Of a stretch of DNA of 64,000 nucleotides, positions 1,388-50,300 are shown in pieces. Source of the DNA: Tomocerus qinae (lineage: Eukaryota > Arthropoda > Collembola > Entomobryomorpha > Tomoceridae); NCBI GenBank assembly GCA_020055645.1, contig CM034548.1:15872001-15936000 (forward strand), given 5' to 3'. The position numbers were made by a program, and so were the translations under genes. Under the pieces are notes generated by a model that made no database searches, was not told the origin of the DNA, and saw nothing but the letters and a program-made list of their open reading frames with translations. The first letter of the stretch is position 1. Each line of letters opens with the position of its first letter.

Positions 1388-2270
1388 GCAGTTAAATTTA
1401 GTCCATGTGCTGACGTGTCCTAAGAAATTGGATTATCTTTGCATTTTCTCTCTTAAATATTTATAAACATCCGCTATAGGCAATTATCAACAACTTAATA
1501 AATACTTGTGTTACAGCGACCAGGAAATTTACTCGAATATTTAAACTGGCATTCAGACTGTGACTGGAAAAGTAAATTGGATTCACTAACAATCAGTCTA
1601 TTGTTTGATACTATTGAAAAAAAAATTAATATTTAGTTTTTAATTAATGACTTTTATTGCATAACAATATGGCAGAATGTAGAAATAGAGTTGCAGTCAC
1701 TATTGTTGCATCTTGCATTGCATGCTAGTCCTCGAGAAATAATCTGTCTAACTTCTTTTAATAACAGCTTCGACTAAATTCTATATTATTGTATGTAATA
1801 CATTCTAATTCTTCTATACTAGTGCATTGTTGTTATGTATGCATAATAGTATTTATGGTAGCCTAGTACAATTACATAGTTTAAATTGTTTCAGTTTAAA
1901 AATTAGGTTCACTGTCTTTGCATGTGGTTATAATAAGCAAATTAAATCATTACAAGTCATATTTTCGCGACAGCAGCCCTGAGGACAGTTCTTAATTAAG
2001 TAGAATGAAATGGTTGACATTCTACCATTGTAATCTAAAGGAAATGGTTTTATTTAGTTTAATTGAATTCTGCATAGTTGACATTTCAAAGCTAAATGGT
2101 AACGATTCTTTTTTTCCTGAGCAGAAACAAGCATAGTAAGCTATATTAATGTGCATTAACGTATTAGCGCTTGGGGCTCTCTGATACGCGAGAATATGAT
2201 ACACATTATGATACAATTCTAAGCAACTATATTAACCGTTTTTTCACTTTCGGACATTTTAGTAGATGAA
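1388..2270. other. intergenic or 5' region of peroxiredoxin
   Basis: This AT-rich stretch has no supportable ORF. It probably contains the promoter and any non-coding first exon of the peroxiredoxin gene, but I cannot place a transcription start. Confidence 0.4.
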
Positions 2271-3517
2271 ATGGCAGCAATTGGACAACTTGCAATTCAA
2301 AAGCCAGCTCCTAAGTGGACAGCCCAAGCTGTCGTCAATGGCGAATTCAAGGAAATAAGCTTGGATGACTACGCTGGAAAATATGTAGTCTTCTTTTTCT
2401 ACCCTGCGGATTTGTAAGACATTTTATAATAAATTTATACTTGGCTTTTACATTGTAAAGAAGTTTGAAGTTATGAAATTTACTCTGAAATTTGGTTTTA
2501 TTTTAGCACTTTCGTGTGTCCAACGGAAATAATTGCGTTTTCTGACCGCAAGGATGAATTTGACAAGATCGAATGTGAAGTTATAGCTGCGTCAACTGAT
2601 TCCCATTTCTCTCATTTTGCATGGTTAGTACTAAATAGTAATTTTCGCTTTCCCGTGTCTACTACCTTGACGGTATTCAATCTAACTAACGCCTATAGAC
2701 TGGAATATTTATGCTAAATTTTTTGTTCATAGGATTAGTACTCCAAGGAAACAAGGAGGCTTGGGTGATATGAAAATTCCGATTGTGGCTGACAAAAACG
2801 GCGATATTGCCAAAGCGTACGGAATTTACAAGGTAAAAACTTAGGTGCCAGACATAGTAATATATCAGTTCATATCTCTAAGCGTTTCGGTGATACAAAC
2901 GAGAGTAATCTAAAGTAGAAACGCGAGTGAAATTGGAATGTGGCGCAGTGTGGCGTTTCCAAAGTACTGTTGCGTTTCTATGTAAAAAAAATACGGAAAG
3001 TCTGGAAGTCAAGTAAATTTGATATATTTTTAGTAAAGAAATATTGCTTTTACGCTTTTAAATTTTTTTTCTTAATTACAGTTATTATTATTAATTCTGA
3101 CGTTTCATTTTGTTCATGCAATAGGAATTCTAAAGGCCACTTATTTCAATTGATTGTTTTGTAAGCTATTATTTGGGTATATCTGTATCTGCAGAATGAT
3201 GAAGGAATTGCCTACCGAGGATTGTTCATCATCGATGGAAAACAAAATTTGCGTCAAATAACTATCAACGATCTCCCTGTTGGTCGCAACGTTGACGAGA
3301 CTCTGCGTTTAGTGCAAGCATTCCAATTTACGGACAAGTACGGCGAAGGTATGTTTTATGTCAAAATATGTATAATGAATATAGTTAGCAGATATACTTA
3401 GTAGTCTATCTTAAAAATTTCATTTCTATTTTAGTGTGCCCTGCAGGATGGAAACCTGGGCAGAAAACTATCAAGCCGACCTTGACTGAAAGCAAGGACT
3501 ACTTTGAAAGTACCTAG
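2271..3517 (+). CDS. typical 2-Cys peroxiredoxin (Prx1/2 type)
   Basis: This is a thiol peroxidase that reduces hydrogen peroxide and is recycled by thioredoxin. It is probably cytosolic, as no signal or transit peptide is visible. Five exons join in frame: 2271-2413, 2507-2623, 2733-2832, 3195-3348 and 3435-3517, giving 198 residues, the usual family length. The peroxidatic cysteine is Cys52 in the motif TFVCPTE. The resolving cysteine is Cys173 in [14 protein letters not shown] motif lies at about 95-98 and a C-terminal Tyr-Phe pair at 194-195. GGLG plus YF is the known signature of eukaryotic peroxiredoxins that are sensitive to overoxidation. All introns are GT-AG and the first two are about 100 bp. 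The start is chosen because MAAIGQL matches the family N-terminus. Nothing looks broken. Assignment to Prx1 versus Prx2 is not meaningful in invertebrates. Confidence 0.96.
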
Positions 3518-4866
3518 GTCAGGTCAGGAGTGTGAGCTACAAATTGCAATCGGCAATTTAATTCCTATAACCCTTATCCTATTTAGTATACTTGTACTTT
3601 ACTGTATTCACAAACTAGCAACGTATATTGTATTAGCACATTGTATTAGCAATTATTTGTAAGTACCTACTTATTCCATGTCACCTAAAACCTTTATCAG
3701 TGATGAAATTGCTTGCTATACAACTGGCAAGATGTTTACTCATACTGCAACTTATAATATTACTGGTTAATATTGTATTAAATTCCTCTCCATCTCACTT
3801 TATATCAATTGCTTACTTATATTTTTTTGTTAACCTTTTCTTAATTGCGTCTGTCTGGTAGCATATGTTCTAGACTATACTGTCGGCAGGATACAGAAAC
3901 ACACCCCAAACTCAAATGAAATAAAGTGATGCTTCATTAAAAGAATGAATCGGTGTTTATACTTTTGTATTATTATTACATGGTCAGTACCATACTCTCT
4001 TAGCTATCTACTCTTCAATTGAATAATAACATGCGGCTTGTACTTGTAGAATGACAGTTAGTGACATTCCCATTTAAATACCAGTGGCTCCTGTTTCCTA
4101 TTTAACGCTTCTGTATAAATTGTGTTCAAACAATTATAGCTGGCTGTATCACTAGCATACTTACAAGTCATACTACAGTTCGGCATCTTTTACTACAATG
4201 ATACAATTGACCTCTCCATAATATTGAGTATCGAATGTGTCATAAATTATGTCCGTGCCTGACACATACGGTACTTAATTTACTTTTACACCATTACATC
4301 GGCATGTCATTGTAAAAGCGAGATTTAATCACTATTTTGAGTATTTTGGCATAAGCATGCTGTTGGATATATTATATAACAACATTAAAAACTGCAAATT
4401 CTGACAATCTTATCCATCAATTTATATTTACTTATTATGATGAATTAAACCGATTTAACAATACGTAATTTAGGAATACTTTTGGTTTGAAAGAATATTG
4501 GAATTATGTTTGCATGTTTATTTTTAGTAGATTTTATTAGTTCGTTATAGGTCTAGAAGTACAAAATTAATCATTTTAGGCTACATACTAAAATAGTAAG
4601 TCGTAACTACCAGTCTTTAAGGCCTTCAGGATCAGCAACTAGTTCATATTATCACATTTAATTTCAGTAATGATAGTTACTTTTTGATGTCTTCCATCGC
4701 ACACTATTCTCTAGTAACAAAACTTTTGCCAAATTTAATGTCCTTGGATAAAATGTCAACACTAAATCTCCACGAAAACTACAAAATGGTTTGAAATGGA
4801 AGATTTTAGCAATTAGTGGCAACACTAAAGACTATCATAATAGTTAATACATTTTTTAATAAAGTT
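3518..4866. other. 3' UTR of peroxiredoxin and convergent intergenic region
   Basis: The first ~400 bp after the peroxiredoxin stop are likely its 3' UTR, ending near the AATAAA at 3920-3925. The remainder separates two convergent genes, with the BRCA2 3' end at 4867, and holds only short chance ORFs. Confidence 0.5.
3920..3925 (+). terminator. candidate polyadenylation signal of peroxiredoxin
   Basis: A canonical AATAAA hexamer lies about 400 bp downstream of the peroxiredoxin stop, on the gene's strand. It is the first exact hexamer I noticed after the stop. In AT-rich DNA such hexamers also occur by chance. Confidence 0.4.
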
Positions 4867-7800
4867 TTATGATTTCTTCAGTGGAGGAACAAATTTTTTC
4901 GACGCCCGAGGAGTTGTTACCATTGTTAACTGTGGAATAGGTGGAGGATTCCCATAAGACTGTAAAAGTTTCATTCTCTTGGCTGAATTGGCACTGCCAG
5001 TCGGGGTAACGTTAAAACTGGCGTTGTTTCCAACGGAAAATGCAGGAGTCTGAGGAGTCCGGGCGCTGTCTTTTACAAAAGAAGTATTGAAGCTTGAATT
5101 TCCTGTAGACAGTCTAGAATCCAGTCTACTAAAAAGTATCATTTCAGAAGACGAAGCGAATGACTTGGGATTCTGAAAATAATTAAATAATAATTTTGTC
5201 GTAATGAAACGTATTGAAAGTAGTGTATATTCAAATTAATAAAGTATTTGCATATTCACATTACTAAGTATTTGTATATTCACATTACTAAGTATTTGTA
5301 TATTCAAATAGCTAAAAGTATGGTTTACCTGTATATTACTCTTTAGCGTATTCAAGGCAGCACACATTATACTTTCTTTAGGGTTTGTTTTAAAAATAGA
5401 TGTTTCCTGAAAGAAAGCTGTAGGAATAAATGATTTAGGGCTGGAAACTCGCCATTGTAAATTGAATATTGATAAGAAAGTTCCTTGTTGCAAAACGTCG
5501 TCCAAAAGTTGATCCTAAGCAATAAATTTTAGCTATATGAGAATTTTGCAGAGTAAAACTTTTTAATGACAGCAAAATTTCCAGTTAAAGAAAATAAGAT
5601 AATGGAAGTAGTAATGAAAAGACTATAATCTGTTAGTATACAGTAACATCTCCTGCCTTAAAACAACTGCTACCTAAATTTATAAGAAATAAAGTTAATG
5701 ATAAAAACGGTTAATTATTTGCACTAATTTAAAATGAGATTTGAAAGAATTTACTAGAAAATTGAATCCTAACAACAAGACCAGACATTAACAAAAATCG
5801 AGTTGGTAAATATTCGGAACAAGTAAGAATAAGCAATAGATTAATCATTTCGTAATCACGAAAACAAAATTTATGTGATTCCATCAATTTTTCCTTACAG
5901 TTATGGAGTTCCAAAACCGGATTGCTAGAAAATTGTTATTTTCATCAGATATATAAACGAGCTGGCCACTATTTCCTACAACAGGCCGTACAGACACCAC
6001 CAGTCCAACAACATCAATCTCCTTGAATAAAGCCGAAAAGTTGGGAGAGATTACATCACTTATAGCATGGCAAATTCTAACGGTTTTCCGGAATATTTCG
6101 GTTGACATATCCATAGCTTGGAATTGCGTTCGTACTGTAGTGTTAAGTTGAATTATATCTTGGTGCAATTTTGAGTTGGTGGTGAGATTACTAATTTCAA
6201 AAGTGTCACCCTCTTTAAGAGACGATAGGAGGGTTTCCGGAGGCTTCCAAAGTGATATGAACGCACAATTCTTAGCATCGGAAACATCTCCACAAGTTGA
6301 AGTATCAAGCACCAACAACTACAAAAAAAAACAAACGTTTCCTTACAAAAAAGAGAAATCAAAGTACTTGGTTATTTGCTAATCAGTAATGCCATAGCAT
6401 AGTATAATGTATTTTGTAAACGCTTACCTTAACTACTTGTGAAGGTTGACCTGCCATTAATTTTTTTCGTTGTGTCTCAAATTGGGACTGGATGGCACTT
6501 CGTATGGAATCTTCTCTAAGGATTTTTGCATTTTGGACCTCATTGAAAACCCCCGGCGACAGCATTGACTACAACATTGAATATTCTTTCTTTTAAAGCA
6601 ATAAAATATATGAAAAAGCCAGTCTATATTCCATTACTCTGCTAGTATTAAAAGTAAATTTTTCATCACTAGGAATAAACTGGAAAATAAAAAAAGTGGA
6701 TGTCGTTTTTCATCATTTCCTACAAACAAATATGGACATCAATTTGAAATTTGCCCCAGATTCTGTTCTATCTAAAATCAGAGGATCGGGAAGATTAGGG
6801 CCCCAACCCAATTATATGATTTGTTGAGTTTTCATTTATTATGCACAAATGCTAATAATTATATTCCACTATATGCTTATTTTAGATACAAGGTAAATTA
6901 GTAACCTCTATGTTCGTTATATCATCAGAACCTTCCATTAAATCCAAAATAGAATCCGGTGGCATTTTATTTAGCGTATTTTTGTTTAAGGATGACAGTC
7001 GACACTTTTTGGGGTCACTTTTATTTGAATATTGTTGCCTAACATCCTTCTCAATTTCAGCATAAATCTTTTCAGCATCATTTTCTGCATCCTGTTTCTT
7101 TTGCTGACTCTCGAACTGTTTTTGAGACAGAATCACTGAAAAATAAAGTAAAAATAAAACTTGTAGTAATCATACACCGAGATAAAAATGGTAATAACAG
7201 TGCCACTCCTTACAAAAAGAAGAGTTACCTGTTTTTCCTTCTGTATTTTTATTTATATATATTGATGGGTAGATGCGAGCCAAGTAAACATTGATAAGAG
7301 CTACTGTCTTTTGATCGTAGGTTATTAAACTAATTTTATCCGGTCGAGTCTCTACGCAGTCCTTTGAGTCGCCACTGGCTGGGACTTCAGTTTTCAACTG
7401 TTCTTCTGGGTCATCCTGAAGTAGTTGATCATTCTCTTCATCCGCCAACAATGCAGTGACGCTGTCCTCTATCTCTTTACCAATCTCATCTGCTTTAAAT
7501 GCCATTGAACTCCCATCCCCCAAATCGCCCAATTTATCACATTCAAAATGGTCATCAAGCATACTAACATCCTCTTTGCTGGTTTCTTCAATTTTGGTTT
7601 CTACAACAGTTTCAGGAGACAAAATACTTATTTTTCCAGATGTAAAAGGAATTGGACTTAGGGCACATTTTCGTAAATCTTCACTAGTTTCAGGTTTCTT
7701 TTTTTCCCATAACTTTTGAACTTCTTTAACCGATTCCACTTTAACAGAAATATTTTTTCCACCTGCTGTAGAAAATCCTGGACCTACTTTTGGCTTTGAT

Positions 7801-10316
7801 TCAACAAAGATATTATCCTTGACCTCTGAATTTTTCCATACATCTGAATCTTTTTTAAGTTCTTCCATTGAAACGGAGATATTCTTCACAGTTTCAGGAT
7901 CTGGTTTTATTTCGATAAAATCATTTTTGCTGGCCTCGATAAATTCCAATAATTTTTGTTCCTTTTTTCGTGCTTCCGTTGAAACTAAGGTATTTTTCCC
8001 AATTGCAGTAGCAAATCCAGGAGCTGTATTTGACTTTCTTCCAATAAAATCATTTTCGTTGACTTCAATATTTTCCATTAATTTTTGTCGTTTTTTAATC
8101 GATTTCTCTGAAACAGGGATATTTTTTCCACTTGCAGTAGCAAATCCCGCAGCAGTATTTGGTTTTATTTCGATAAAATCATTTTTGCTGGCCTCGATAA
8201 ATTCCAATAACTTTTGTTCTTTTTTCCGTGCTTCCGTTGAAACTGAGGTATTTTTCCCAATTGCAGCACCAAATCCCCGAGCGGTATTTGGCTTTCTATC
8301 TATAAAATCACTTTGGTTGTCCTCGATATTTTCCATTAATTTTTGCCGTTTTTTAAGCGATGCTTCTGAAATTGATATATTCTTTCCACTTGCAGTAGCA
8401 AATCCCACAGCTGTATTTGGTTTTATTTCTATAAAATCATTTTTACTGCCCTCAATAAATTCCAATAACTTTTGTTCTTTTTTACTTACTTCCGCTGAAG
8501 CTGATGTATTTTTTCCAATTGGAGTAGCAAATCTCGGAGCTGTATTTGGTTTTCTTTCAATAAAATCATTTTCATTGACCTCGATATTTTCCGTTGATTT
8601 TTGTCGTTTTTTAAGCGATTCCTCCGAAACAGACGTATTTATCTCACTAGCAGCAATTCCCGAAGTTATATTTGGTTTTCTTTCTATAAAATCATTTTCG
8701 TTGACCTCGATATTTTCCATTAATTTCTGTCGTTTTTTAAGCGATTCCTCTGAAATTAAGGTATTTTTCCCACTTGCAGCAGAAAATCCTAGAGCTGTAT
8801 TTGGTTGTCTTTCTATAAAATTATTTTCGTTGACCTCAGTATTTTCCATTAATTTCTGTCGTTTTTTAAGCGATTCCTCTGAAATGAAGGTATTTTTCCC
8901 ACTTGCAGCAGAAAATCCCGAAGCTGTATTTGGTTTTGTTTCTAATAAATAATTTTCGTTGACCTCAGTATTTTCCATTAATTTATGTCGTTTTTTAAGC
9001 GATTCTTCTGAAACGGAGATATTTTTCTCACTTGCAGTAGCAAACCCCGGAGTTGAATTTGGCATAATAAAATCATTGACAATTACATCTGTATTTTTCC
9101 ATAATTTTTGACATTTTTTAACTGCTTCCTTTGAGACGGAGATATTCTTCCCACTTGCGGTTGTGAATCCTGGAGCTGCAGTTGGTTTTATTTCGATTAA
9201 ATCATTTTCGCTGGCCTCGATAAATTCCAATAACTTTTGTTCTTTTTTACGTGCTTCCGTTAAAACGGATGTATTCTTCCCCCTTCCTCCTAATCCCGGA
9301 GCTACATTTGTCCTTCTTCTAATAAAATCGTCATTATTTATCTCTAAATTTTCCCTTAATTTTTGAACTTTTTTAATTGCTTCTGTTGAAACAGAGATAT
9401 TCTTCCCAGTTGTAGTTGCAAATTCCGGAGCTAATGTTTCATTTGGGTTTCTTTCAACAACATCGCTATTCTTGCCCTCGTTGTTTTTCCATAAATTTCG
9501 TACTTTTTTAATTGAATCGGTTGACACGGAAACATTTTTCCCACTAGCAGTGGATAATCCTTTGGTAAGCATCGTTGGCATTGGCGGCATTGTGGGCCAA
9601 CTAAAATCATCTTCCTCCTCCTCCATTGATTTCAAATCGTCTTGAGGCATTTCTATGTCTTCTGGAGCTACAGGAGTAACTTCACTGTCTGTATATCCTA
9701 TCTGTAAAGTATTTACGCTAACTTCTTTTACTGTTTCTTTCCGATTACTTTCAACTTTCTTTATAGCTTCAGTAGACTCAGCAATACTTTTCGCACTAAC
9801 GGTAGAAAACCCTGGCTTTGGGATCGATTTAGACGAATCAGAATTTTTATTTGGTTGATTTGTTGTAGCTAAGGCACATGTACTTATCTCACCCAAAATT
9901 CGGTCTTCGTCCTCTTGTTCCTCCTCTTTTTCGCGCAATTTAATTATCTTATTGACTCTTTTTCGTCTTTCTTTATTTCGAGCTTTCGTATTTGGTGTAT
10001 CCGCTTTAACAACGGTATTGAACGCCATTCTATTTAATTCATCTAATACTGGGTCTGTGTCTGAACTTGCATTTGACATTTCGTCATCAGAAGAAAATGA
10101 ATACCCTACAACTGGGCTTTTCAAAAAATCTTCACTGTCCTCGTTTTCGTTAGCAACTGCTTCCGCTACTTGGCACACTTCTTCCAGAGTTTTAGGAGAT
10201 ATTTGTTTGAAATATGCTTGGGTATATTCTGACATTTTCGGTTCTGGCTTCCCTGCAGGTTTGCTTAATACTTTTGGAGGAGTCATATAATTATCTTCCC
10301 AGTCCATTTTCTCCAT
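4867..10316 (-). CDS. BRCA2: BRCA2 orthologue with ~16 BRC-like repeats and compact DNA-binding region
   Basis: BRCA2 loads RAD51 onto single-stranded DNA during homologous recombination. Six exons join in frame (minus strand): 10316-7229, 7135-6906, 6568-6428, 6318-5899, 5514-5329 and 5172-4867, giving 1456 residues. The giant first coding exon carries BRC-like units of about 43 residues, one near residue 167 and the rest from ~250 to ~870. Units resemble GFATASGKNISVS followed by a basic helix (LKKRQKL). The later exons match the BRCA2 C-terminal fold: the end of OB2 (ARIYPSIYI...), a charged tower arm, the tower return (SAIQSQFETQRKKL), then OB2/OB3 (VVGLVVSVRPVVG, FLAIRFWN, NLQWRVSSPKS). 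The helical domain and OB1, which precede this part in vertebrates, are not visible. The tail is Ser/Thr/Pro-rich and ends FVPPLKKS. Human BRCA2 is 3418 residues with 8 BRC repeats. The transcript is unverified but all junction phases agree. Confidence 0.93.
5229..5309. repeat. short ~24 bp tandem repeat in BRCA2 intron
   Basis: About three copies of a unit resembling AAGTATTTGTATATTCACAT lie in tandem inside the last BRCA2 intron, ending about 20 bp from the donor side of the exon at 5329-5514. The copies are nearly identical. This looks like a small minisatellite with no evident function. Confidence 0.7.
7745..9570 (-). repeat. BRC-repeat coding array, ~129 bp unit
   Basis: About fifteen tandem coding units of ~43 codons make up the centre of BRCA2; one further divergent unit lies near 9815. 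Two sub-types occur. One has a helix like SLKKRQKLMEN followed by IEVNENDFIERKPN. The other has ARKKEQKLLEF followed by IEASKNDFIEIKPN. From about unit 10 onward they alternate strictly, so adjacent pairs (258 bp) look like the duplicated block. About nine units keep the FxxA tetrad that in known BRC repeats fits the RAD51 oligomerisation pocket (FATA, FSAA, FTTA, FSTA, FGAA). Several others are degenerate, for example near 9300, 8660 and 7890. Confidence 0.9.
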
Positions 10317-10834
10317 CTTTAATCAAAATTTATCAACCATTACGTATATTGTACTAAATTGCTATGCCGAATTATTTAAAAATGCAATTCTCAATACTTA
10401 AAAATTATCTTTCTGAAAAGTCGAAATAAGTATTCTTAGAATGATGACAAATAACCATATATTGAATGCAATAAAATATTTTACCGTCACACTGGTACTC
10501 TGGTACAATAATGCAACAATTAAATACGCCTCAGAGAGAGAATATTAAACATTGAAGGCTGTCTGATTGAATTTTGACGGCGTCGTTTCACGTCAGTTGT
10601 CAGTCTTTCGTCAAAAAAGATTCAAGTACTAACTTCCACTATAATACGACAAAGATAATACACATGTTTAATTCAACATCAACTATGTTACTAATAATAC
10701 GAATGGATATTAAATCAGACACACTTTCGTAGTTCTGCTTATTTATTGGGGATATTTATGTAATTCTAGATCTAGTGTAATGTAATTCTTGGTGAAAATG
10801 AAGATCATTTCCGCGGGTTGAGGTAATAATAATA
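10317..10834. promoter_or_regulatory. likely bidirectional promoter, BRCA2 / small ORF
   Basis: Only 518 bp separate the divergent start codons of BRCA2 (minus) and the 109-codon ORF (plus). No TATA box is obvious near either start, so position is the only evidence for a shared promoter. A short upstream reading frame (ATGAAGATCATTTCC..., closing with TGA) starts at about 10798, before the plus-strand ORF. Confidence 0.4.
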
Positions 10835-11164
10835 ATGTGTGATCTGATCAACATTCAATATTCGCTCCGGTTGTCGGAAGCAAAGAAACTCTTGTCGCAT
10901 CGGTTAGCATGGCTGGCTAATTTGGAGACCTGTTACAAAAGTTTGCAAGGAAAAAAGAAACCATCCTCAAATCTATTACGTGGTTACTTTTCAATGAAAA
11001 GAAAAATTATTGCACTGTCGACTAAGACAATTCGATTTCAAAAATCGAAGAAAGACAAACACCGGACGGAGGATATTCTTTTTCTGCTCTACATCAATTC
11101 TCGATTGTGCCTACATATGAGCAAGTATTTGTATAGAACTGAGTTTCGGAGAGGGCTATTATAA
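10835..11164 (+). CDS. small hypothetical basic protein divergent to BRCA2
   Basis: This is an uninterrupted 109-codon frame with ATG at 10835 and TAA at the end. I do not recognise the family. The product is strongly basic, with Lys/Arg clusters such as GKKKPSS, MKRKII and KSKKDK, and is predicted mostly helical (SLRLSEAKKLLSHRLAWL). It has no signal peptide or membrane segment. Amino-acid composition and lack of low complexity look protein-like. Its divergent arrangement with BRCA2 over about 0.5 kb suggests shared regulation, but gives no function. It may be a single-exon gene or the first exon of a longer one. A nucleic-acid-binding role would only be a guess from charge. Confidence 0.45.
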   Translation: MCDLINIQYSLRLSEAKKLLSHRLAWLANLETCYKSLQGKKKPSSNLLRGYFSMKRKIIALSTKTIRFQKSKKDKHRTEDILFLLYINSRLCLHMSKYLYRTEFRRGLL

Positions 11165-11663
11165 ATTTTACCGTAAAAATTTCTTGGGAGGTTAGCCCGT
11201 ATAGCTCCCCTCAATACATCATTGTATATGGAACAGGTTGAAAATTACTAAATCACACTGTACATAAGTATTACGTACACATAAACGACATGAGTATATT
11301 ACATGCTTAAAAATAATGCATTATTGAATTCTCCATTATACATTCTGATTCGATACAAGTTAACAAAGAAATAGTCTTGGCGTCCCTTCTCATGTTACTG
11401 CATTTTACAGAAACAGTCAAACTCTCACATAACAGCACCAGTCAATATCAATGAACCATAGTAGAGTATAGTAGATAGAAACAAGCAACTATTGATACAC
11501 TATTTCCATGCCACCAATGAAAATTATCTGTAGATTATGTGGATGTATGTTGATGCCTGTAACCAAAATCTCATCTTGACTTGACGCTGGCGGGCAAAGA
11601 TTTCTAAACGATGTGGTACTACCAAATTACAATCCGCCCCCAGTAGGGTTTATCACACACAGT
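11165..11663. other. spacer between small ORF and tandem array
   Basis: No ORF or repeat can be supported in this stretch. It leads directly into the ~130 bp tandem array. Confidence 0.4.
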
Positions 11664-12862
11664 CTACCCATGCAAAAAGTGTAAGCTAGTGCCTATTTTT
11701 CTACCGGGCAAAGTCCAACAAATGATTATTCAAAACGTATTCAAATTTCCAACCTCTGTGCGTTCCAGCCCCAGCTACAGAAAAGTTCTTTGTTCCCAAT
11801 GCAAATAGATGCAGGCTAGTGCCTATCATTCTACCGGACAAAGTCCAGCGAACAATTATTCAAAACGTATTCAAATTTCCAGCCTCTGTGCGTTCCAGCC
11901 AGCCCCCACTACAGAAAATTTCTTTGCTCCCCATGCAAAAATTGTAAGCTAGTGCCTATTTTTCTACCGGGCAAAGTTCTACAAATGATTATTCAAAACG
12001 TATTCAAATTTTGAACCTCTGTGCGTTCCAGCCCCAGCTACAGAAAAGTTCTTTGTTCCCCATGCAAATAGGAGCAGGCTAGTGTCTATCATTCTCCCGG
12101 ACAAAGTCCAGCGAATAATTATTCAAAACGAATTCAAATTTCCAGCCTCTGTGCGTTCCAGCCAGCCCCCACTACAGAAAATGTTTTTGTTCCCCATGCA
12201 AATAGGAGCAGGCTAGTGCCTATCATTCTACCGGACAAAGTCCAGCGAACAATTATTCAAAACGTATTCAAATTTCCAACCTCTGTGCGTTCAAGCCACA
12301 ACGACAGAAAAGTTCTTTGTTCCCCATGCAAATAGGAGCAGGCTAGTGCCTATCATTCTACCGGACAAAGTCCAGCGAACAATTATTCAAAACGTATTCA
12401 AATTTCCAACCTCTGTGAGTTCAAGCCACAACGACAGAAAAGTTCTTTGTTCCCCATGCAAATAGGAGCAGGCTAGTGCCTATCATTCTACCGGACAAAG
12501 TCCAGCGAACAATTATTCAAAACGTATTCAAATTTCCAACCTCTGTGCGTTCAAGCCACAACTACAGAAAAGTTCTTTGTTCCCCATGCAAAAAGTGTAA
12601 GCTAGTGCCTATTTTTCTACCGGGCAAAGTCCAACAAATGATTATTCAAAACGTATTCAAATTTACAACCTCTGTGCGTTCCAGCCCCAGCTACAGAAAA
12701 GTTCTTTGTTCCCAATGCAAATGGATGTAGAGTAGTGCCTATTATTCTACCGGACAAAGTCCAGCGAACAATTATTCAAAACGTATTCAAATTTCCAACC
12801 TCTGTGCATTCCAGCCCCAACTGCAGAAAAGTTCTTTGTTCCCCATGCAAATAGGTGTAGGC
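11664..12862 (+). repeat. nine-unit ~130 bp tandem array with octamer-type sites
   Basis: Nine successive copies of a ~130 bp unit can be followed by the shared string TTCAAAACGTATTCAAATTT or close variants, whose core (CAAAACG) starts at 11731, 11861, 11994, 12124, 12258, 12388, 12518, 12647 and 12777. Each unit repeats the same candidate sites. ATGCAAAT (octamer) is exact at 11799, 12062, 12196, 12326, 12456, 12715 and 12845, and appears as ATGCAAAA in three others. In most units CTTTGTT lies four bases before the octamer. Most also carry CAAAGTCCA, and many AACAATTATT. The array is non-coding; a frame through it (12476-12730) only exists because 130 bp units shift phase slowly. It ends about 85 bp before a TATA box, so an upstream activating role is plausible but inferred. 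Confidence 0.93.
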
Positions 12863-12945
12863 TGGACCCTAGACTTTGGACCTTCTCCTCATCGTCCATT
12901 TTCCAGTTAGTACATGTTGCCGTTTAAACAAAGGAAAAAAAATCA

Positions 12946-12981
12946 TATAAATAGGGGTTCTCGAACGATTAGAACTCACTG
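12946..12981 (+). promoter_or_regulatory. core promoter: TATA box plus initiator
   Basis: TATAAATA lies at 12946-12953. An initiator-like TCACTG lies at 12976-12981, so its central A is 32 bp after the first T of the TATA box, the spacing expected of a TATA/Inr promoter. Transcription would start near 12978. A 5' UTR then runs to a good donor (TTG|GTGAGT) at 13113/13114, with the acceptor at 13233, before the ATG at 13263. Confidence 0.7.
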
Positions 12982-13262
12982 TCACTCTGAATTTTGTGCC
13001 GATGACATCTAACTAAAAACGCTCTGCCAAGCTTTGAAGAGGTTTTCTTACTCTGTGTCACGACTTACGAATTTTGAAGTTTTCTATCTACCTGTCTCGA
13101 AAACTGCAAATTGGTGAGTAGTAAAATTTTTCACAGTCTCCGATTTTTCTCTCAAAAATCCATTTTAATTTATTTCAAGCGAGTAGTAAGTCATAAGTCA
13201 CATCAAATATTAATCTTTTGATTCCATTTTCAGTACGAAAGTGACTTCCCCCGGCCCAGAAG

Positions 13263-15927
13263 ATGCCTTCAAGGAACAAGAACGTCGCTCCGGGAAGGTA
13301 ATGCTTACTTATTTTATAATTGCTTAAAGTAAAATTTTCCATGTTCCATGTTAGTTTGAACATGATAATTTATTTTATTTTAGTTTGGTGTTTTATAGAT
13401 TGAAGCGCACTGTCTAATTTTCAAATTCTTATTTTATTCATTTTCCTAGATACAACTGTGGAAAATGCAAAGTGACATCCCCACCGCCAGTCAACAACGT
13501 CAGACGGAGTTTTACGAAGAAAAGACAGGCCGTCGTAAAGGAATTCATAAGACGTTATCCAACAGGACTTTCTGGACTTAAAGGACCCCGCTCAGAAGTA
13601 TTGGCTGCTGGACTCTACCATTTTATGGTTAACTCTGAAAATGATACGGATGTAAAACTCTCTGATGTCAAGAGATGGATCAAAGAGCATTCGTGGATTG
13701 CAGAAGTAAGCTATTTTTCATACTCGTAATATTTTCTATTTTTATTCGCCCAAGCTTGTGTAAGAAGAGACAGTCAATACGCTAAACTTATTTCAAACTA
13801 TACTTTAGATACGCTGTTTTTAAAATTTTATCTAAGAAGTTTTGTAAGAAATTTTCTCAGTCAAATTCGATATTTTTCAGTTTTCTCAGTGAATGTTACA
13901 ACAAAATGAAATGATAATTTTTTTATACAACTTATCTTTACTACTATATAAACGTAAAGTGGGACATGTGCGTGGAATTCTGTCGGTATTCTTGTATAAT
14001 TAAACGTTATACGTATGTCCGTTTCGTTTTGTAATAATTGAAAGTTGTATGTATGTCCGTATCGTTTTGTAATGAATGGACAACCAGTTTTGATTTTGTT
14101 TTACTTTCAACACGCTTAGGCATCAAAAATTGGTCTACTAAACAATCAACGATCTATCGATGAAATTCGAACCAATGCACAATTGCTAGAAAATTACTTA
14201 TTTCAACATTTTACTAGCGCATTGTACCAGGGATGCAGAAAGTGTTACATAAATGTCTTAATTTGGTCTGATAATTAAACTCTGAAGTTATGACTGTTGA
14301 TTTTTCTCAAACGTGATTTCTTTTTTAGGGCCTTCAGACTCCTCGACGTAGTTCTCGATTGGAATCTGTCGCTACTCCACCACATTCACCAGTACCGGTG
14401 CTAAATCCGACCCGGATGATTACACGGAATTCATTAAGGCGCTTGGGTACACAAAATGATCGTCGTCCAAATGACCCAATACAACAACAGAGAGTCCCTA
14501 CTCCAACACATCACAGCCCCCTCAACGTAGATCCACCAAATGTTCCTAATCAAAATGAATTACCTCAACAACAAGCCGTAGATGCACCAAATGGTCCAAT
14601 TGAAAATGAACAAGACATCATGGAAGTACCAAATGCTCCTATTGGAAATGAACAAGACTTCGTGGATGTGCCACTTGATCCATTTGGAAATGAACAAGAC
14701 ATCATGGCTGTGCAACTTGATCCATTTGTAAATGACGAAGACGTCGAGTATGTACCAAATGATCCGATTGGAAATCAACAAGCCGTCGTGGATGTACCAA
14801 ATGATCCGATTGGAAATCAACAAGACGTCGTGGATGTACCAAATGATCCGATTGGAAATGAACAAGACGTCGTGGATGTACCAAATGATCCGATTGGAAA
14901 TCAACAAAACATCGTGGATGCACCCAATGGTCCAATTGATAATGATGAAGACGTCATTTATGTACCACATGATCCATATGGAAATGACGAAGACGACGTG
15001 TATGTACCTCCAATTGGAAATGAACTAGACGTCGTGCATGTACCAAATGAACGAGAACAAGAAGCCGGGCCTGTTTCACACCGTTGTCCCTTATTGGTTA
15101 ATCCCCGAGTTCTTGCAAACTCATCACCAGTTTCGCGATTTTACAACCTCGTCTATCCTTGTTTTCCTTCAGGATCACATGCCTTTCAACGAACATGTAA
15201 GTTTCCAAAAATTAAATAAGCGATAAATTAATTTTCTATATATCTATATATCACATTAATGGAAACGGGTTAAGAACTAAAGAAACTAAAATTTTATGTT
15301 GAAGGTTACGGCACGGCTCAACCTGGAAATTGTCATAGCTGTTCAGGACGGAATACCACCCGCTATCAAAAGCAAAAAATCTTGGATGAATATTCTGCAA
15401 CCCTTGACAATTTGAAAAGGATGGATGCCTTTTTTTGTGCACACCCTCCACTCCGTCATGCCCTTATCCACCTCCACAAATTGGGAAGAGTATTGTATCG
15501 TTGCCAATCTACTTTCGTTAGTGCAGAGAGGCGATCCGAACTTTTTACCGAGTATGTGAAACAGAAAGGAGTCAATAATTACCAATTTGTGAAACCGGAA
15601 ACAAATCAGCCTGCAGCTTCGAGTTCAACTTCGGCAAATAATTCCGTTGCGCTTGCGATCCCTGCTACTCGGAGCACTGCGACTGCGACCGCGACCGCTG
15701 ATGAACAAAGCGCTGCTAACCATTCAATGAACGAAGACTCCAATCGTCCCTCTACTCCTCATGCAGAAGACTCCAATCGTCCCTCTACTCCTCATGCAGA
15801 AGACTCCAATCGTCCCTCTACTCCTCATGCAGAAGACTCCAATCGTCCCTCTACTCCTCATGCAGAAGACTCCAATCGTCCCTCTACTCCTCATGCAGCT
15901 CAACAACCCCAACCTCCGACTCAATGA
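13263..15927 (+). CDS. unrecognised repeat-bearing 593-residue protein
   Basis: Four coding exons join in frame: 13263-13297, 13450-13705, 14329-15196 and 15305-15927. A non-coding first exon at about 12978-13113 is likely. I do not recognise the family. Residues 12-130 are basic and include a CGKC pair (Cys15, Cys18) and a segment RRSFTKKRQAVVKEFIRRYP that looks helical. A Ser/Arg-rich stretch (RRSSRLES, RNSLRRLG) follows. Residues ~177-340 are 11-12 acidic repeats of 14 residues (DVVDVPNDPIGNEQ). Residues ~387-480 form a globular-looking region with Cys387, Cys396 and Cys399 (GNCHSC) and helices (HALIHLHKLGRVLYRCQS). The C-terminus has five identical 11-residue repeats (EDSNRPSTPHA) and ends QPQPPTQ. 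No signal peptide or membrane segment is visible, so a nuclear or cytoplasmic protein is likely. Splice sites are consensus and all phases agree. Confidence 0.8.
14566..15058 (+). repeat. in-frame 42 bp tandem repeats (14 residues)
   Basis: Eleven to twelve degenerate units of 42 bp encode variants of DVVDVPNDPIGNEQ within exon 3 of the unrecognised gene. The central units (14760-14930) are almost identical in DNA and the outer ones diverge. That is the usual pattern of unequal exchange. The array keeps the reading frame throughout except for one shorter unit near 15010. Confidence 0.92.
15733..15897 (+). repeat. five identical 33 bp coding repeats (11 residues)
   Basis: Five copies of a 33 bp unit encoding EDSNRPSTPHA appear identical at the nucleotide level. 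Perfect identity implies recent expansion or continuing homogenisation, so copy number may vary between individuals. Confidence 0.95.
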
Positions 15928-16075
15928 ATTAACCTCGTAATACAAGGTATGTGTGAAAATAATTAAATAGCCTTTACCTATTATCGAAAATATTTTGTAA
16001 ATTTTTGATGTGTTTGGATATGTAACATTTATTAAGTAATTGCACGCATTTCTATCTATGAAAATTATACCTATC

Positions 16076-16860
16076 TTTTCTTATTTCTGACCTTTCTTCT
16101 TATTATTCTAGTACATTTTTTGTTTTTGAAGTGAAAGTAACCTAATTATGATTTTGTAGTAGTGAAAGTAGTCCATTAGAGATGTATAATGAATTGTAGA
16201 AAGATTGTAATCAAAACTTAATAATTAATATCACTAGATAGATGGTAGATTAGTAAAATACAATATATCTTTCCTAAATCTGATCTTTGTTCTTGTTATT
16301 TTAGTACATTTAGCGTTTGTTATGGGAGAAAATTTAACTTAATTATAATTTTGTAGTGGTGAAAGTAGTACATTAGAGATATATAATGAATTGTAGAAAG
16401 GTTGTAATCAAAACTTAATAATTAATAAAACTAGATAGATGGTAGATTAGTAAAATACAATATATTTTTCCTTAAATCTGATCTTTGTTTTTGTTATTTT
16501 TAGTACATTTAGCGTTTGTTTTGGGAGAAAATGTAACTTAGTTATAATTTTGTATTGGTGAAAGTAGTGCGAGATATATAATGAATTGTTGAAAGGTTGT
16601 AATCAAAACTTAATAATATAAAACATTATATAGATGGTAGATTAGTAAAATACAATTTCTTTTCTTAAATCTGATCTTTGTTCTTGTTATTTTAGTACAT
16701 TTAGCGTTTGTTATGGGAGAAAATGTAATTTAATTATGATTTTGTAGTGGTGAAAGTAGTGTATTAGAGATATAATGAATTTTAGACAGATTGTAATCAA
16801 AACTTAATAATTAATAATCCTAGATAGATGGTAGGTTAGGAAAATACAATTAAGAGTTTA
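16076..16860 (+). repeat. four-unit ~195 bp tandem array downstream of the orphan gene
   Basis: Four AT-rich units can be aligned by the string TTTAGTACATTTAGCGTTTG, with the GTACATT core at 16111, 16304, 16503 and 16695 (periods of about 193, 199 and 192 bp). Shared parts also include TGTAATCAAAACTTAATAAT and AGATAGATGGTAGATTAG. The first copy is the most diverged. The array starts about 150 bp after the stop codon, so it may lie in the 3' UTR or just beyond. No ORF runs through it. Confidence 0.92.
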
Positions 16861-21300: not shown

Positions 21301-23434
21301 AAAATGGCCAAAAAGTTTTTATTACATTTCCCCGACGCCGTTTTAGAAAACAAAAAAATAAAGGTAAAATGCATATTAAAATTTGGTAGGTAAATTGTCC
21401 AGAAAAATTATGTATCCACATCAAGTATAGGTAGAAGGGATGCCATTGACGGTGCTATACCAGCTACTATGCTTTGCTGGTGAAAATGAGACAAATGGGT
21501 CTTACTCTTTGTTCTTTGATTTCGGCCCTATCCCAAACTCCAAAGTCGAATTCGAAAGATCGAAAGCAAAGTTGTGACGGTAAAGTTATTAATTTCCATT
21601 GTCTCATAAAATGATAAATTGGGTACCTCTACTCTTCAAAAACCTCCCCATTTGTAATGAATGACATAAAATGTTCAAACATATCTGGAATTAGTTCAAG
21701 CTTGGGTAAATTTATTTTCTCTTACAAATATCCTACGAAATAATATTCTTACCATCAATCCACCTTTTATTTCCCTCGCCAAATTTTCTGGTTTTTTTGA
21801 TAACAACAGCATTGCAAAATGCTCTTTCAGTACATGTCAAGTACTCTTTCCCTGGGCGTTTTGTCCGTAGTGTATACACATACTCGTTTCGTGCTAATTG
21901 CTGTGTTATTTTATTTTTAGAAATGAATAATCTTGAAAAAGAAGCCATTTTGGAAATTATTTTGGAAATAAGAAACTAACACGGCCAGCTGAACGATTGA
22001 GAATAGAATAAGAAAGACAACTAAACTAGTAATCGTCTTCCTTAGCATCACAGAGCTACTATGCTAACTAAGGGTTTCTCAAGATTCAAGAACAAAGCAC
22101 AAACTACTAATTATACTGTTCTCCTATTGAGCTGTCAATCACTTCAAATGAGCAATGAAGTAAGATAAGCTAGGGTCCAACTCGTCCTGCAGTGAAATGT
22201 ATGTAAAAAGTACTGCTAGTAACCTTGCACACGAATTACAATTTAACTACTTATTTTATGCTCCAAATATTTATCACGCACTTCTTGATATCGCAAATGA
22301 AAGTTTTCCATCTGTAACAGTTAGTAGTAACCTAAAAAATTCTACAGGTATTCCAATTCCTAAAGTACCAGAACTAAAAGAGCTATCTGTCCTACGATCT
22401 ATGCATTACTTGCCATTAGGATTGAAATTTTGTTATTGTAGTTAGGATTATATATCACCATACAAATCGAACTCCCGGTACTGATAATTGTGTAATAAAC
22501 ACCAATTGTACGTATTTTTATGTAGCTTAACTCCGTTTAAATTTAACTCCGTTTATCTGAGTATACTAGTAATTGTATCAGAATTGTTTTAATTTCCTAG
22601 AAATTTACAGATACTCAGCACATGATGAGATTTAAATCAACTGACTGACAAGTATTACATAAAATGAAACTGTTTCCAATCTATTGTTGCATAATAATAA
22701 TTGGTTACTATATAGCCCAATAACCTACTTACATATGGGCTTCTTATGTAACTTGGTGAAGTAGAGTCAGTAAAGTGCATGGATATTTTATTCACCTGTT
22801 AAGATAATTGCCAATGGATTCTGGGAATTAAGAGAAATGAGATTACCAAAAGAGCTGGTGCTAGAGAGCCCCGGTGTGGGTCGAGGAAACTTTTGCCCCT
22901 CTTCAAAAGAAGTCAAGTTGATAGCTGCCACTTCCTCAGAAAGAGTTTTCATGATTTCGTCCATCAGCCGATTGTCACAATCGACATCCACCATGATCTC
23001 AAACTCGGAAGGTTTTCGCTTTGACTTCCTCGATTCAATGTGAATCACATTCACTCCATTATCTTCAAAAACTTTCAAAGCTCTTGCCAAGCCTCCCACT
23101 TGATTTTTCAATGAAAATATTACGCAGTTGTGATTGGAATTTTTCTGGCTGTCCTCAACTGGCTCAATTGGCTAAATTAGCAAAAATTTTCATTGCTAAT
23201 ACTAAATGGAGGCTATATTGGCAAATTGGCAATCTTATTAAACTAAACTTAAAATATTTTATGAAAACCTAAATTTCTCTTTATTCCTTTTGATATGTTT
23301 TTAAAATCACTAAAATAGTGTATAGTTGAATAGCTTACCTGTTTACGATTAGTGCTTTCTTTCATGGTCCAGTCAGTGCTGTCTCCCATTTTGTAGAGCC
23401 AGAGTCCCAGAATACCTTTTCCTGACCCACTCAT
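18310..23434 (-). CDS. Trh: tryptophan 5-hydroxylase
   Basis: This enzyme hydroxylates tryptophan using tetrahydrobiopterin, ferrous iron and oxygen, the rate-limiting step of serotonin synthesis in neurons. Ten exons join in frame: 23434-23339, 23171-22796, 20672-20575, 20159-20092, 19989-19939, 19862-19717, 19628-19493, 19384-19258, 19041-18812 and 18547-18310, giving 521 residues. Residues ~45-120 are the ACT-type regulatory domain ([31 protein letters not shown]). The catalytic domain starts at [15 protein letters not shown]. The iron ligands are His328, His333 (CHELLGH) and Glu373 (FTVEFGL), with the family's exact 5 and 40 residue spacing. The C-terminal helix is [20 protein letters not shown] rather than phenylalanine or tyrosine hydroxylase is favoured by [28 protein letters not shown] and [12 protein letters not shown]. 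The intron at 20673-22795 is long; the others are mostly under 500 bp. Confidence 0.96.
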
Positions 23435-47353: not shown

Positions 47354-50300
47354 ATGTACACTAAAGCAAGCATAGTGATTTTGTTCATGGCAAGTTTAAC
47401 ACTCTTTTTTCATACCACAAAATCAGCACGCTCCCAAACAAATCCAGTGTGGGGAAGGTGAGTGAAATTTTGTTGTCTCTTAGCGAGAAAATAGTGTGAT
47501 GCATAACTGTTCCACTGTATTTCATTTCAGGAGTGACAAAATAGAAAATAATTAACTAATAGCAGAGCATAAGAATGCTACTGGCCGTGTTAATACTGTT
47601 TAGTTGCAACTTATATCACGAGGCAATAATTTTCATTTTAACTAATCTTTTCCCATGGAATTAAATGAAAGTATATATGCAGTCCAATCTGTCCAAATGA
47701 GTTCAATACAATCCAATTCAGTCCAATTCGGTGTAATTCTGTTCAATTCAGTCCAACTATATTATATTGACCTGTTCATTAATTAATTTACCTACATGCA
47801 GCATTATTTTATTTAATTCCTAACCTGTTAAAATGGGATTAAAGTAACCTAACCTAGCACTTCATATTTTTCTTTTTATAGATTAGTTAGCAGTTGGAAT
47901 TCAAATGCTGACATGGGAAAATTTCTTCTAGATGCCTTTCTGAAAATGGGAGATATAGAGTAAGTTTGAAGAGTTATAAAAGTTGAAAAATAGCCCAATT
48001 TGTAATAGTACGTATACTATACTTCATTTTTTTGGAAACTGATTACTCATTAATGATATTTGAACATCTGCTAATACAAATTCTAACAAACTTTTGTAAT
48101 TTAAGCTGCACAATTGTTATTTACGATGGTCGATTTTCGAAAATGCTAGATGCGATAACATTTTGCCACCCGACTCTACCCCGCTGTGCTCATAAGTATA
48201 TAGTTAATTTTAGTGGTAAGCAATTAATATCTTAAAATTGACATACCCACTAACTGTTACACTCGTCAAAGTTGATTCATATATACAATAGGTGGGCATA
48301 TGTAATCAATGTTTAAATTGACAATGAATGGTAGGGGAGAATATTACGGATTCTATAGAGACAACATTGAAGGCAGCTTACCAGGAACAATGCGGTGGTT
48401 ACATTATACTATTGACCAAAACGACTACAGTGACAACTCTTTTGCACATCGGCGATGATTCAAGAATGATAAATACGAGGGCAAGGTAACTCAACCGAAT
48501 CTATCTGATTATTACATTGTCAGAAGACGATCTGGCGTTATTGTATAATTACATCTTATTTTTATGACATGGCTGACAGGTTTCTTATATGGTACGGGAC
48601 ATTTGACATTGGTTTTGAGTCGGATGAAATCTGGAAGAAAATTCCCAACGTGATACTGATTTACTCTAAAACAAAAAAGAGAAACACTTAGTAAATTCAT
48701 ATTGCATAACAAGATAGTGACACTATTTGTTCTTTTTTAACTGTAGTTCTAAAATATATGTTTTAATTTACCATTTCGTTTACTGCAGTGGAATGACTTT
48801 CACGATAATGAGTATGATCTGGCCAGTAATTCCAGGGAGCAAAGACCAAACAAAAATTCTTGATTTTTGGAGACATGGGAAACTTCGTAAAAATGACGAA
48901 AATTGGTTTTACGACAAAACTACTGATCTAAAAAATGCAACGATTCGGGTCTTGGTCGTTGAACATCCTCCAGGCGTCATTAAATATACTTCCCAAGATG
49001 AGATAACAGTAAGTCTTCGGCCTAGCTTACATTAGTAGCTTATCTACAGGGATAGTCAAAAATATAAATATTTTTGAAATGCATAGTCTCTAATTTATTG
49101 TGAATTTTCTTAATTTTCCAGAATGTTAACTTTTTATCTAGTAAAGAAACCCTTGAAATTTAAAATTTAAACATGTTACATTTAAAAGCATGCAAAAGTT
49201 AACCTAGAAAAATCTTGGAATATTTTATGTTCCTCATCGATAATATTTTATGTATGAAATTTTTATAGCGCTTCTTCAGTTTCGAACTTTGACAAATGAA
49301 TGTTAAAAGACTTAAAGTTGTACATGGTTAAAATATACTGATTTTTACCGAAGTGATTATTATCCGTATTTTTCCAGGTGGAGTATGCCGGTACGGAAGT
49401 TGAATTGGTGAAGGAACTATCTGGGATCATGAATTTTAATTTTGCAATAGTGGATGCGGATACGGAGAACAAATGGGGTGGCCAGAATAATAGAAATTCT
49501 TCTCGGAAGTTTTATGGAGCTGTAGCGAGATTAATATATGGAGAGACGGACATGGCCATTGGTTCCTTTTTCATTTTGAAACACTATTTGGAATTTCTAG
49601 ACATGAGTGTTCCTTTGGACGTGGCGTGTACATCGTTCTTAACTCCAACTCCACTGCCTCGACCTCGCTATCTAGCTCTAATTCTGCCATTCCGCTACAG
49701 ACTTTGGGCACTGGTCGTTTCCATCGTTCTTATTTTTGCTCCTGCAGGTTTGTACCTTCTGACCAAGGCGCCTCTATTGATAAGGGAGTACCGTGCCTTC
49801 AGCGGACGTCTTAATGCAGTTTTCTCTTCAATAAGCATAATGTCTCAAGTGGCTCTGCACGTGTGGCCAAAATTTTGGCCCGTTCGAATGTTCATTGGAT
49901 GGTATTGGATTTTCTGTCTTCTAGTAACATTGGTCTATCGAGGAGCAATGGTATCTTTCCTCACCATCCCACTGTACGAAAAGCCCTTGGACAATTTAAA
50001 TGACTTGGCTGCATCGCCACTTCGATTCGGAGGTTGGGGAATCGAACTTCAACGACTTTTCACTAGACATCAAAATTCCTCCTCGTCTGTGGCTGCTTCC
50101 AATATAAATCTACTTACTAAACGATACGAAGTACGAATTTCCTTTCATCCAACGAAATTAAAAAAGTTATTAAACTAAAGTAGTTAAATATCTGCAGAAT
50201 CTTATAAAAACAACTTAGATAATTGTGCATTTGTAAATTTCCTGAGGTATCTTGGAATATTAAATATTCACAATATTTTAAAATAGTAATTTTATGATTA

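What the first reader, a model, noticed from the sequence alone, without database searches (positions are those of the whole stretch)
11664..12862. Tandem array repeats a SOX-OCT-like composite site about nine times upstream of an orphan gene
Seen directly: nine ~130 bp units. Most contain CTTTGTT, four bases, then ATGCAAAT, together with CAAAGTCCA and AACAATTATT. Established knowledge: ATGCAAAT is the POU/octamer site, CTTTGTT and AACAAT are SOX-type sites, SOX-OCT composites with a short spacer drive genes such as vertebrate FGF4, and CAAAGTCCA resembles the HNF4 site. Inference: the array could be a multi-copy enhancer rather than a neutral satellite, since the same motif combination is carried in each unit and the array stops just before a TATA promoter. 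A four-base spacer is not the classic 0 or 3, so cooperative binding is unproven.
Basis: partly seen in the sequence, partly recalled or inferred. Interest (0 to 1): 0.85.

Follow-up and report, generated by a model that had tools for sequence, protein, structure and literature searches.

The report
Repeated regulatory switch before insect genes
A 1.2-kilobase stretch of nine repeats in front of an unknown, probably insect gene multiplies a short DNA word that many of its sister genes also carry before their start sites, and a few sister genes appear to have built different repeats around the same word, which makes a repeated on-switch more likely than meaningless repeat DNA, although no experiment has tested it.

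Summary
The array is real: nine ~130-bp units (11667-12863) ending 83 bp before a TATA box. It is single-locus in the 334-Mb genome, apart from decayed units before the closest paralog. The 'orphan' gene belongs to a multigene family (42 domain hits, 27 below E 0.001). CTTTGTT/AACAAAG is the top 7-mer in nine paralog promoters (9 of 9, p=3.8e-10), and stays first without the two where it was first noticed (7 of 7, p=4.7e-8). 26 of 35 held loci carry it. Other family loci have unlike tandem arrays (148, 35 and 215 bp) upstream, each repeating the box; the 215-bp one, at a weakly supported member, also repeats ATGCAAAT. The same AACAAAG-TATA-TCAYTCT core lies beside nine copies of an amplified PIWI gene.

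So the enhancer reading gains support, mainly for a SOX-type HMG box. The fixed 'SOX-OCT composite' does not: spacing is not kept, the paralog's octamer is changed, octamer presence is not enriched family-wide, HNF4 sites do not recur. Within-array motif conservation is suggestive, not significant. Best reading: a promoter-proximal, multi-copy SOX-type activator platform, grown repeatedly by tandem duplication in a possibly germ-line gene network. Neutral duplication of box-bearing promoter DNA remains possible. No expression data.

The parts
11667..12863 (+). tandem array, nine ~130-bp units plus a partial tenth; CTTTGTT, ATGCAAA(T/A), CAAAGTCCA, AACAATTATT and an invariant ATTCAAAT
12834..12852 (+). 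promoter-proximal copy of CTTTGTTCCCCATGCAAAT, 93 bp before the TATA box; the ACAGAAA..TTCTTTGT..CCCCA element around it is shared with the C3:22.8-Mb paralog cluster
12926..12934 (+). AAACAAAGG; AACAAAG ends 12 bp before TATA. AACAAAG or CTTTGTT lies 9-12 bp before the TATA position in 10 of 13 promoters printed (two of the 13 are the PIWI locus, found through this pattern)
12946..12988 (+). core promoter: TATAAATA and ..CGATTAGAACTCACTGTCACTCT, homologous to paralogs (TATAAATA..CGATTAGAAGTCATTCT)
13234..13297 (+). predicted exon 2 of the family gene, ATG at 13263 (exon 1 is taken as 5' untranslated, donor after 13113)
   Evidence: splice sites and open frame; inferred, no transcript data
13450..13705 (+). 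predicted exon 3: family-defining ~70-aa domain
14329..15196 (+). predicted exon 4, includes 14-aa (42-bp) tandem repeats
15305..15927 (+). predicted exon 5, 11-aa (33-bp) repeats; the spliced model gives 593 aa
16072..16850 (+). 197-bp x4 array downstream of the gene; CTTTGTT in 3 of 4 units. Not upstream of a known promoter, so it counts against the box being multiplied only at promoters

Best explanation
The array is a promoter-proximal, multi-copy binding platform for a SOX-type HMG-box activator, with POU-type sites (ATGCAAAT, perhaps ATTCAAAT) as a secondary component in this array and some others. It drives a member of an expanded gene family. Shown: array, core promoter, gene family, enrichment of the AACAAAG box in paralog promoters, and unlike arrays carrying the box at other family loci. 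Inferred: tandem duplication starting near an ancestral box-bearing promoter element raised the number of sites and so promoter strength or the probability of being on. Because the same AACAAAG-TATA-TCAYTCT core also lies beside an amplified PIWI gene, the likely place of action is the germ line. The identity of the factor (SOX rather than TCF or forkhead) is inferred from the AACAAAG core only.
For: Array abuts the promoter. AAACAAAGG + TATAAATAGGGGT occurs twice in the genome, here and at the closest paralog, which has decayed units of the same array. AACAAAG/CTTTGTT ranks first of 1890 7-mers in nine paralog promoters (-300 to TATA, 9 of 9, 26 copies, p=3.8e-10) and first of 1723 without the core (8 of 9, p=1.4e-8). 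Without the window and L040, where the box was first noticed, it is first of 1578 (7 of 7, p=4.7e-8) and first of 1428 without the core (6 of 7, p=1.7e-6). 26 of 35 held family loci have at least one and 24 of 35 at least two in 1500 bp (its background of 0.219/kb would give about 28% and 4%; many of the 35 are close copies). Arrays upstream at other family loci: 148 bp x~8 (L038-L042, L047), 35 bp x2.8 (L043/L044), 215 bp x4.8 (L046). Pairwise, these and the window array share at most a 36-bp stretch above shuffles. Arrays ending within 250 bp upstream: 4 of 10 promoters against 3.7% of random positions (p=3e-4), or 3 of 9 without L046 (p=3.6e-3). 6 of 6 upstream arrays hold two or more AACAAAG or ATGCAAAT against 2 of 26 other arrays (Fisher 3e-5); with L046 counted among the others and the PIWI locus left out, 4 of 4 against 3 of 27 (1.1e-3). 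Core pattern: 29 hits in the genome against 6 control; 12 are this family, from which the pattern was made, and 9 lie 3.9-4.3 kb from a PIWI exon. HMG-box (31 matches) and POU (8 matches, apparently 4 loci) genes are present. PMC4419465 (passages seen) gives CAAAG as the Drosophila Sox core and links motif number to conserved binding.
Against: Motif columns are not significantly slower than the rest in any array with the motifs named beforehand: window 0.072 vs 0.120 (rotation fraction 0.146), L046 0.111 vs 0.197 (0.107), L047 0.056 vs 0.087 (0.338); the SOX and octamer sites alone give 0.21. Box density in arrays is about that of the promoters, so neutral duplication would also multiply boxes. 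9 of 35 family loci have no box in the 1500 bp held. L046 is a weak family member (E 0.0016, not found), its TATA was picked by eye, and no box lies between its array and that TATA's last 35 bp. Without the window, L040 and L022 and without the core, the box is third, not first, of 1232 7-mers (5 of 6, p=1.8e-5). With L046 added it is second of 2074, behind the overlapping ACAAAGG. Two other arrays at family loci, not upstream of a promoter, also carry the box (window 16072-16850; L028). Of about 14 similar PIWI places in the listing, only 9 have the core pattern nearby. Paralogs are not fully independent (window and L022 align over 84 bp). No expression, chromatin or binding data.
Confidence: 0.6

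Rival explanations
1. Neutral minisatellite: promoter-proximal DNA of this family is prone to tandem duplication; because the ancestral promoter already holds AACAAAG boxes, any array born there multiplies them without selection.
For: Units show subtype blocks typical of unequal exchange; within-array motif conservation is not significant; box density in arrays resembles that of promoters; the gene's coding exons also hold tandem repeats and it has another array 3' of it.
Against: Units 78-99% identical and, in L046, 74% matches by TRF still keep the box in most units; arrays of unlike sequence carry it; two or more octamers occur in four of six upstream arrays and in 0 of 26 others (2 of 4 against 1 of 27 under the stricter sorting, p=0.04), although octamer presence is not a general feature of these promoters.
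Confidence: 0.28
2. The AACAAAG box serves core-promoter or chromatin opening (TATA-proximal factor, nucleosome exclusion, or tethering), and the array is a boundary or opening element between the BRCA2 gene and the family gene rather than an activator platform.
For: The box at 9-12 bp from TATA is the most regular one; the array lies between two divergently oriented genes.
Against: 8 of 9 promoters have further boxes between -300 and -35; no AACAAAG or CTTTGTT within 4-20 bp of a TATAA was found on the minus strand of 10301-11700.
Confidence: 0.1

Closest known systems
Clusters of transcription-factor binding sites near promoters (homotypic or heterotypic clusters)
   Same: many copies of one short site within about 1 kb of a start site
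   Different: here the copies are made by tandem duplication of 35-215-bp units and this seems to have happened separately at several family loci
SOX-OCT composite enhancers (vertebrate FGF4, UTF1; recalled)
   Same: CTTTGTT and ATGCAAAT lie side by side at 6 of 10 unit starts
   Different: spacer 4, not favoured elsewhere in the genome; octamer altered in the nearest paralog; no shared spacing in L046
Group B Sox binding intervals of Drosophila (PMC4419465; passages seen)
   Same: CAAAG core; binding conservation rises with motif number
   Different: genome-wide DamID intervals of Sox factors studied in the nervous system; no tandem arrays in the passages seen
Amplified PIWI genes of the pea aphid (PMC3230593; title and start of abstract in a listing)
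   Same: expanded PIWI repertoire in an insect

Membership tests
SOX-OCT composite enhancer | SOX and octamer sites both present | tested here: met
   6 exact CTTTGTT-N4-ATGCAAAT in the array
SOX-OCT composite enhancer | 0- or 3-bp spacing (recalled) or at least a spacing kept in relatives | tested here: not met
   spacer 4 here; nearest paralog ATGAAAAT; L046 13-15 bp; no spacer-4 preference in the genome, 5 of 56
SOX-OCT composite enhancer | cooperative binding of a SOX and a POU protein | not testable with these tools
   needs EMSA or ChIP; genes with HMG box and POU domain exist
Transcription-factor binding site cluster at a promoter | several copies of one site near a start site, above background | tested here: met
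   7 CTTTGTT in 1.2 kb against 0.219/kb background; same word first-ranked in paralog promoters
Transcription-factor binding site cluster at a promoter | sites under constraint | tested here: inconclusive
   motif columns less variable in three arrays, none significant with motifs named beforehand
Satellite DNA | long arrays or dispersal at many loci | tested here: not met
   single locus plus one relative at the paralog
HNF4-bound enhancer | CAAAGTCCA site shared with related promoters | tested here: not met
   1 of 12 other promoters within 1000 bp (L055) and one copy near L046

The most novel reading that the evidence does not exclude
In this insect a germ-line regulatory code of SOX-type (AACAAAG) and POU-type (ATGCAAAT, ATTCAAAT) sites at a stereotyped TATA promoter is shared by amplified PIWI genes and an expanding orphan family, and promoters of both gain new strength by repeatedly growing private minisatellites around these words: satellite-born enhancers arising in parallel within one gene network.
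Probability: 0.32. Interest if true: 0.8.

Novelty: new variant of a known kind. Interest (0 to 1): 0.6.

Why it matters
Tandem repeats near promoters are often set aside as noise. Here different repeat units multiply the same word in front of related genes, so the question whether minisatellites are a recurrent raw material for enhancers can be tested inside one genome. The link to an amplified PIWI gene, if borne out, would also give a handle on how an insect coordinates expanding germ-line gene families.

Tried and rejected
Fixed SOX-OCT composite: rejected on spacing and on the paralog. Octamer as a family-wide element: rejected, 8 of 35 loci. HNF4: rejected. Dispersed satellite or mobile element: rejected. 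Of the seven 24-mer relatives outside the array three were fetched with flanks (L019, L020, L021); only L019 was read and it looks like coding sequence by eye; the other four share one sequence and were not examined. Core pattern with CTTTGTT in the other orientation: 11 hits against 8 control, 2 in the family, so not general. A divergent AACAAAG-TATA promoter on the BRCA2 side: none found. Expanded POU genes: 8 matches in what look like 4 loci, no expansion. Pfam for the orphan domain: nothing above a cut-off; PDB: no match for the L022 paralog, the only one tried. Naming the species from chromosome lengths in papers: no hit. The listings of paper searches, of which I saw titles and abstract starts, showed no report of such arrays; only PMC4419465 was opened (passages). 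Two further core-pattern hits (C1:12.95 and C1:4.67 Mb) were read and I saw no family domain by eye; the other six were not read. Seven of the 42 family hits were not fetched. One search leaves out family lineages in which I could not locate a core promoter (L029/L035/L036, L030, L045, L054, L056-L059) and L046; one search adds L046, and one search covers all 35 held loci. In some searches the units were cut at exact matches of a short word, which favours that word; no unit was lost by it in the window.

Full report
Observation. The array is there and as described: nine units of 129-134 bp from 11667 to 12863 with a partial tenth. Six of ten unit starts read CTTTGTT-N4-ATGCAAAT exactly, 8 of 9 units carry CAAAGTCCA, 5 of 9 AACAATTATT. 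Units come in subtypes with block order, the mark of unequal exchange. In the 334-Mb genome the array was found once; a 95-bp relative lies on C1.

The gene. Downstream are a TATA box (12946), a presumed 5' untranslated exon ending at 13113 and coding exons that give a 593-aa model (inferred from splice signals). Exon 3 carries a ~70-aa domain with nothing above a Pfam cut-off; the paralog domain has no PDB match. It has 42 hits at E up to 1, 27 of them below 0.001, in its own genome, many in clusters on C1 and C3 (36 hits with another query). The gene is therefore a member of a family. On the other side of the array, on the minus strand, is a BRCA2 gene (BRC repeats, OB2 and OB3 folds). That the genome is an insect's is an inference from gene content (PIWI closest to Siwi; ionotropic-receptor-like channel).

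The promoter. The closest paralog, on C1, has the 95-bp array relative in front of a promoter with the same AAACAAAGG-TATAAATAGGGGT core, a pair of sites found twice in the genome. Its upstream region holds what look like two decayed units about 140 bp apart (by eye; one aligned): there CTTTGT and flanks are kept, the octamer reads ATGAAAAT. Aligning the promoters and scanning for TATA with a TCANT start (which did not ask for AACAAAG) located the core at further paralogs; L022 and L040 had been noticed through the box itself. AACAAAG lies within 60 bp upstream of TATA in 11 of 13 promoters (two of the 13 are the PIWI locus, found through that pattern).

Is the box special? I ranked every 7-mer present in nine paralog promoters against 131 kb of other sequence of this genome. 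CTTTGTT/AACAAAG is first of 1890 (9 of 9 promoters, 26 copies, p=3.8e-10) and remains first of 1723 when the core is removed (8 of 9, p=1.4e-8). Dropping the window and L040, where it was first seen, it is still first of 1578 (7 of 7, p=4.7e-8) and of 1428 without the core (6 of 7, p=1.7e-6). Dropping L022 too, it is first of 1368 with the core but third of 1232 without it (5 of 6, p=1.8e-5). With L046 added it is second of 2074 with the core, behind the overlapping ACAAAGG. The segments share only short stretches, apart from window and L022 (84 bp). Over the 35 family loci held (of 42), 26 have at least one box in 1500 bp upstream of the exon and 24 at least two; nine have none. Many of the 35 are near copies of each other. 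The octamer is different: 8 of 35 loci have one, about what background gives, and four have two or more.

Other arrays. Tandem arrays directly before the core promoter occur in the C3:22.8-Mb cluster (148 bp x~8, AACAAAG twice per majority unit, plus ATGCATAAAT and ATTTGAAT) and at C1:68.67 Mb (35 bp x2.8, TTTTCTTTGTTCTCGCC.., a single ATATGCAAAT nearby). At C1:65.74 Mb (L046) is a 215 bp x4.8 array with 9 AACAAAG and 6 ATGCAAAT. L046 is the richest parallel and the least certain: its domain scores E 0.0016 and is not found, and its TATA, 193 bp after the array, was picked by eye. L055 has a 17-bp x3 array of ATTTGCAT/ATTTGAAT, 279 bp before its TGTAAAT. The arrays are unlike: pairwise, the window array exceeds shuffles only with L046 (36 bp), L043 with L046 over 20 bp around the box, and L055 with the PIWI array over 44 bp of octamer repeats. 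Four of ten promoters have an array ending within 250 bp, against 3.7% of random positions (p=3e-4); without L046 3 of 9 (p=3.6e-3). Six of six upstream arrays multiply one of the two words against 2 of 26 other arrays; sorting L046 with the others and leaving out PIWI gives 4 of 4 against 3 of 27 (p=1.1e-3). The two exceptions are at family loci but not before a promoter (window 16072-16850; L028).

PIWI. A genome-wide search for AACAAAG-TATAAD-TCAYTCT, a pattern made from these promoters, gave 29 hits against 6 for the reversed pattern. Twelve belong to the orphan family. Nine on C3 lie 3.9-4.3 kb from a Piwi-domain exon, facing away from it; about five similar PIWI places in the listing have no such hit. 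One was read (L060): a PIWI N-terminal exon (Siwi, E 5.5e-25) with its own CTTTGTT-TATA promoter, and between the two divergent cores a 20-bp x9 array with ATTCAAAT and four ATGCAAAT. The genome gave 153 Piwi-domain exon matches, 71 places after merging 73 starts that I picked from the listing (fragments and Argonautes included). The remaining eight pattern hits are about the control number.

Constraint. With motifs named beforehand, motif columns vary less than the rest in the window array (0.072 vs 0.120), L046 (0.111 vs 0.197) and L047 (0.056 vs 0.087), but rotation fractions are 0.146, 0.107 and 0.338. Adding ATTCAAAT after seeing the data gives 0.045 and is not counted.

Reading. What recurs is the AACAAAG word, at a regular place by TATA and in additional copies upstream, in unlike repeat units. 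That favours a multi-copy activator platform for a SOX-type HMG protein (CAAAG core as in Drosophila Sox, PMC4419465 passages). TCF would prefer CTTTGAT and forkhead TGTTTAC (recalled), so these fit less well. POU sites are a plausible second input in this array, L046, L055 and the PIWI locus. Germ-line action is an inference from PIWI only. The main rival is that promoters already rich in the box tend to duplicate, with no selection on copy number; nothing here excludes it.

Noticed in passing
L060 (C3:23542400-23546400), 1525-3341: 41-bp x44 tandem repeat just downstream of the AACAAAG-TATA core that faces away from a PIWI gene; might be a non-coding transcript unit. Eight more places on C3 have the same core beside a PIWI exon, not read.
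   Followed up: partly
genome, C1:45.55-46.32 Mb, C1:61.07-61.23 Mb, C3:18-37 Mb: Very large expansion of Piwi-domain genes: 153 exon matches, some with in-frame stops.
   Followed up: partly
window 7170-10322 (-) and 5884-6318 (-): BRCA2 with nine BRC stretches in one open frame, DNA period 129/258 bp; likeness to the 130-bp array period not tested.
   Followed up: no
window 14577-15050 and 15733-15898: The family gene's exons hold 14-aa and five 11-aa tandem repeats, the latter with 100% DNA matches, so probably recent.
   Followed up: no
window 16072-16850: 197-bp x4 array 3' of the gene, CTTTGTT in 3 of 4 units.
   Followed up: partly
L022 (reverse strand, about 4735-5201): Closest paralog seems to end in a hydrophobic helix (by eye), unlike the window gene's repeat-rich tail.
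   Followed up: no
window 49357-50178 (+) and 22788-23171 (-): Ionotropic-receptor-like channel (Lig_chan) and an ACT domain, weakly of the tyrosine hydroxylase kind.
   Followed up: no
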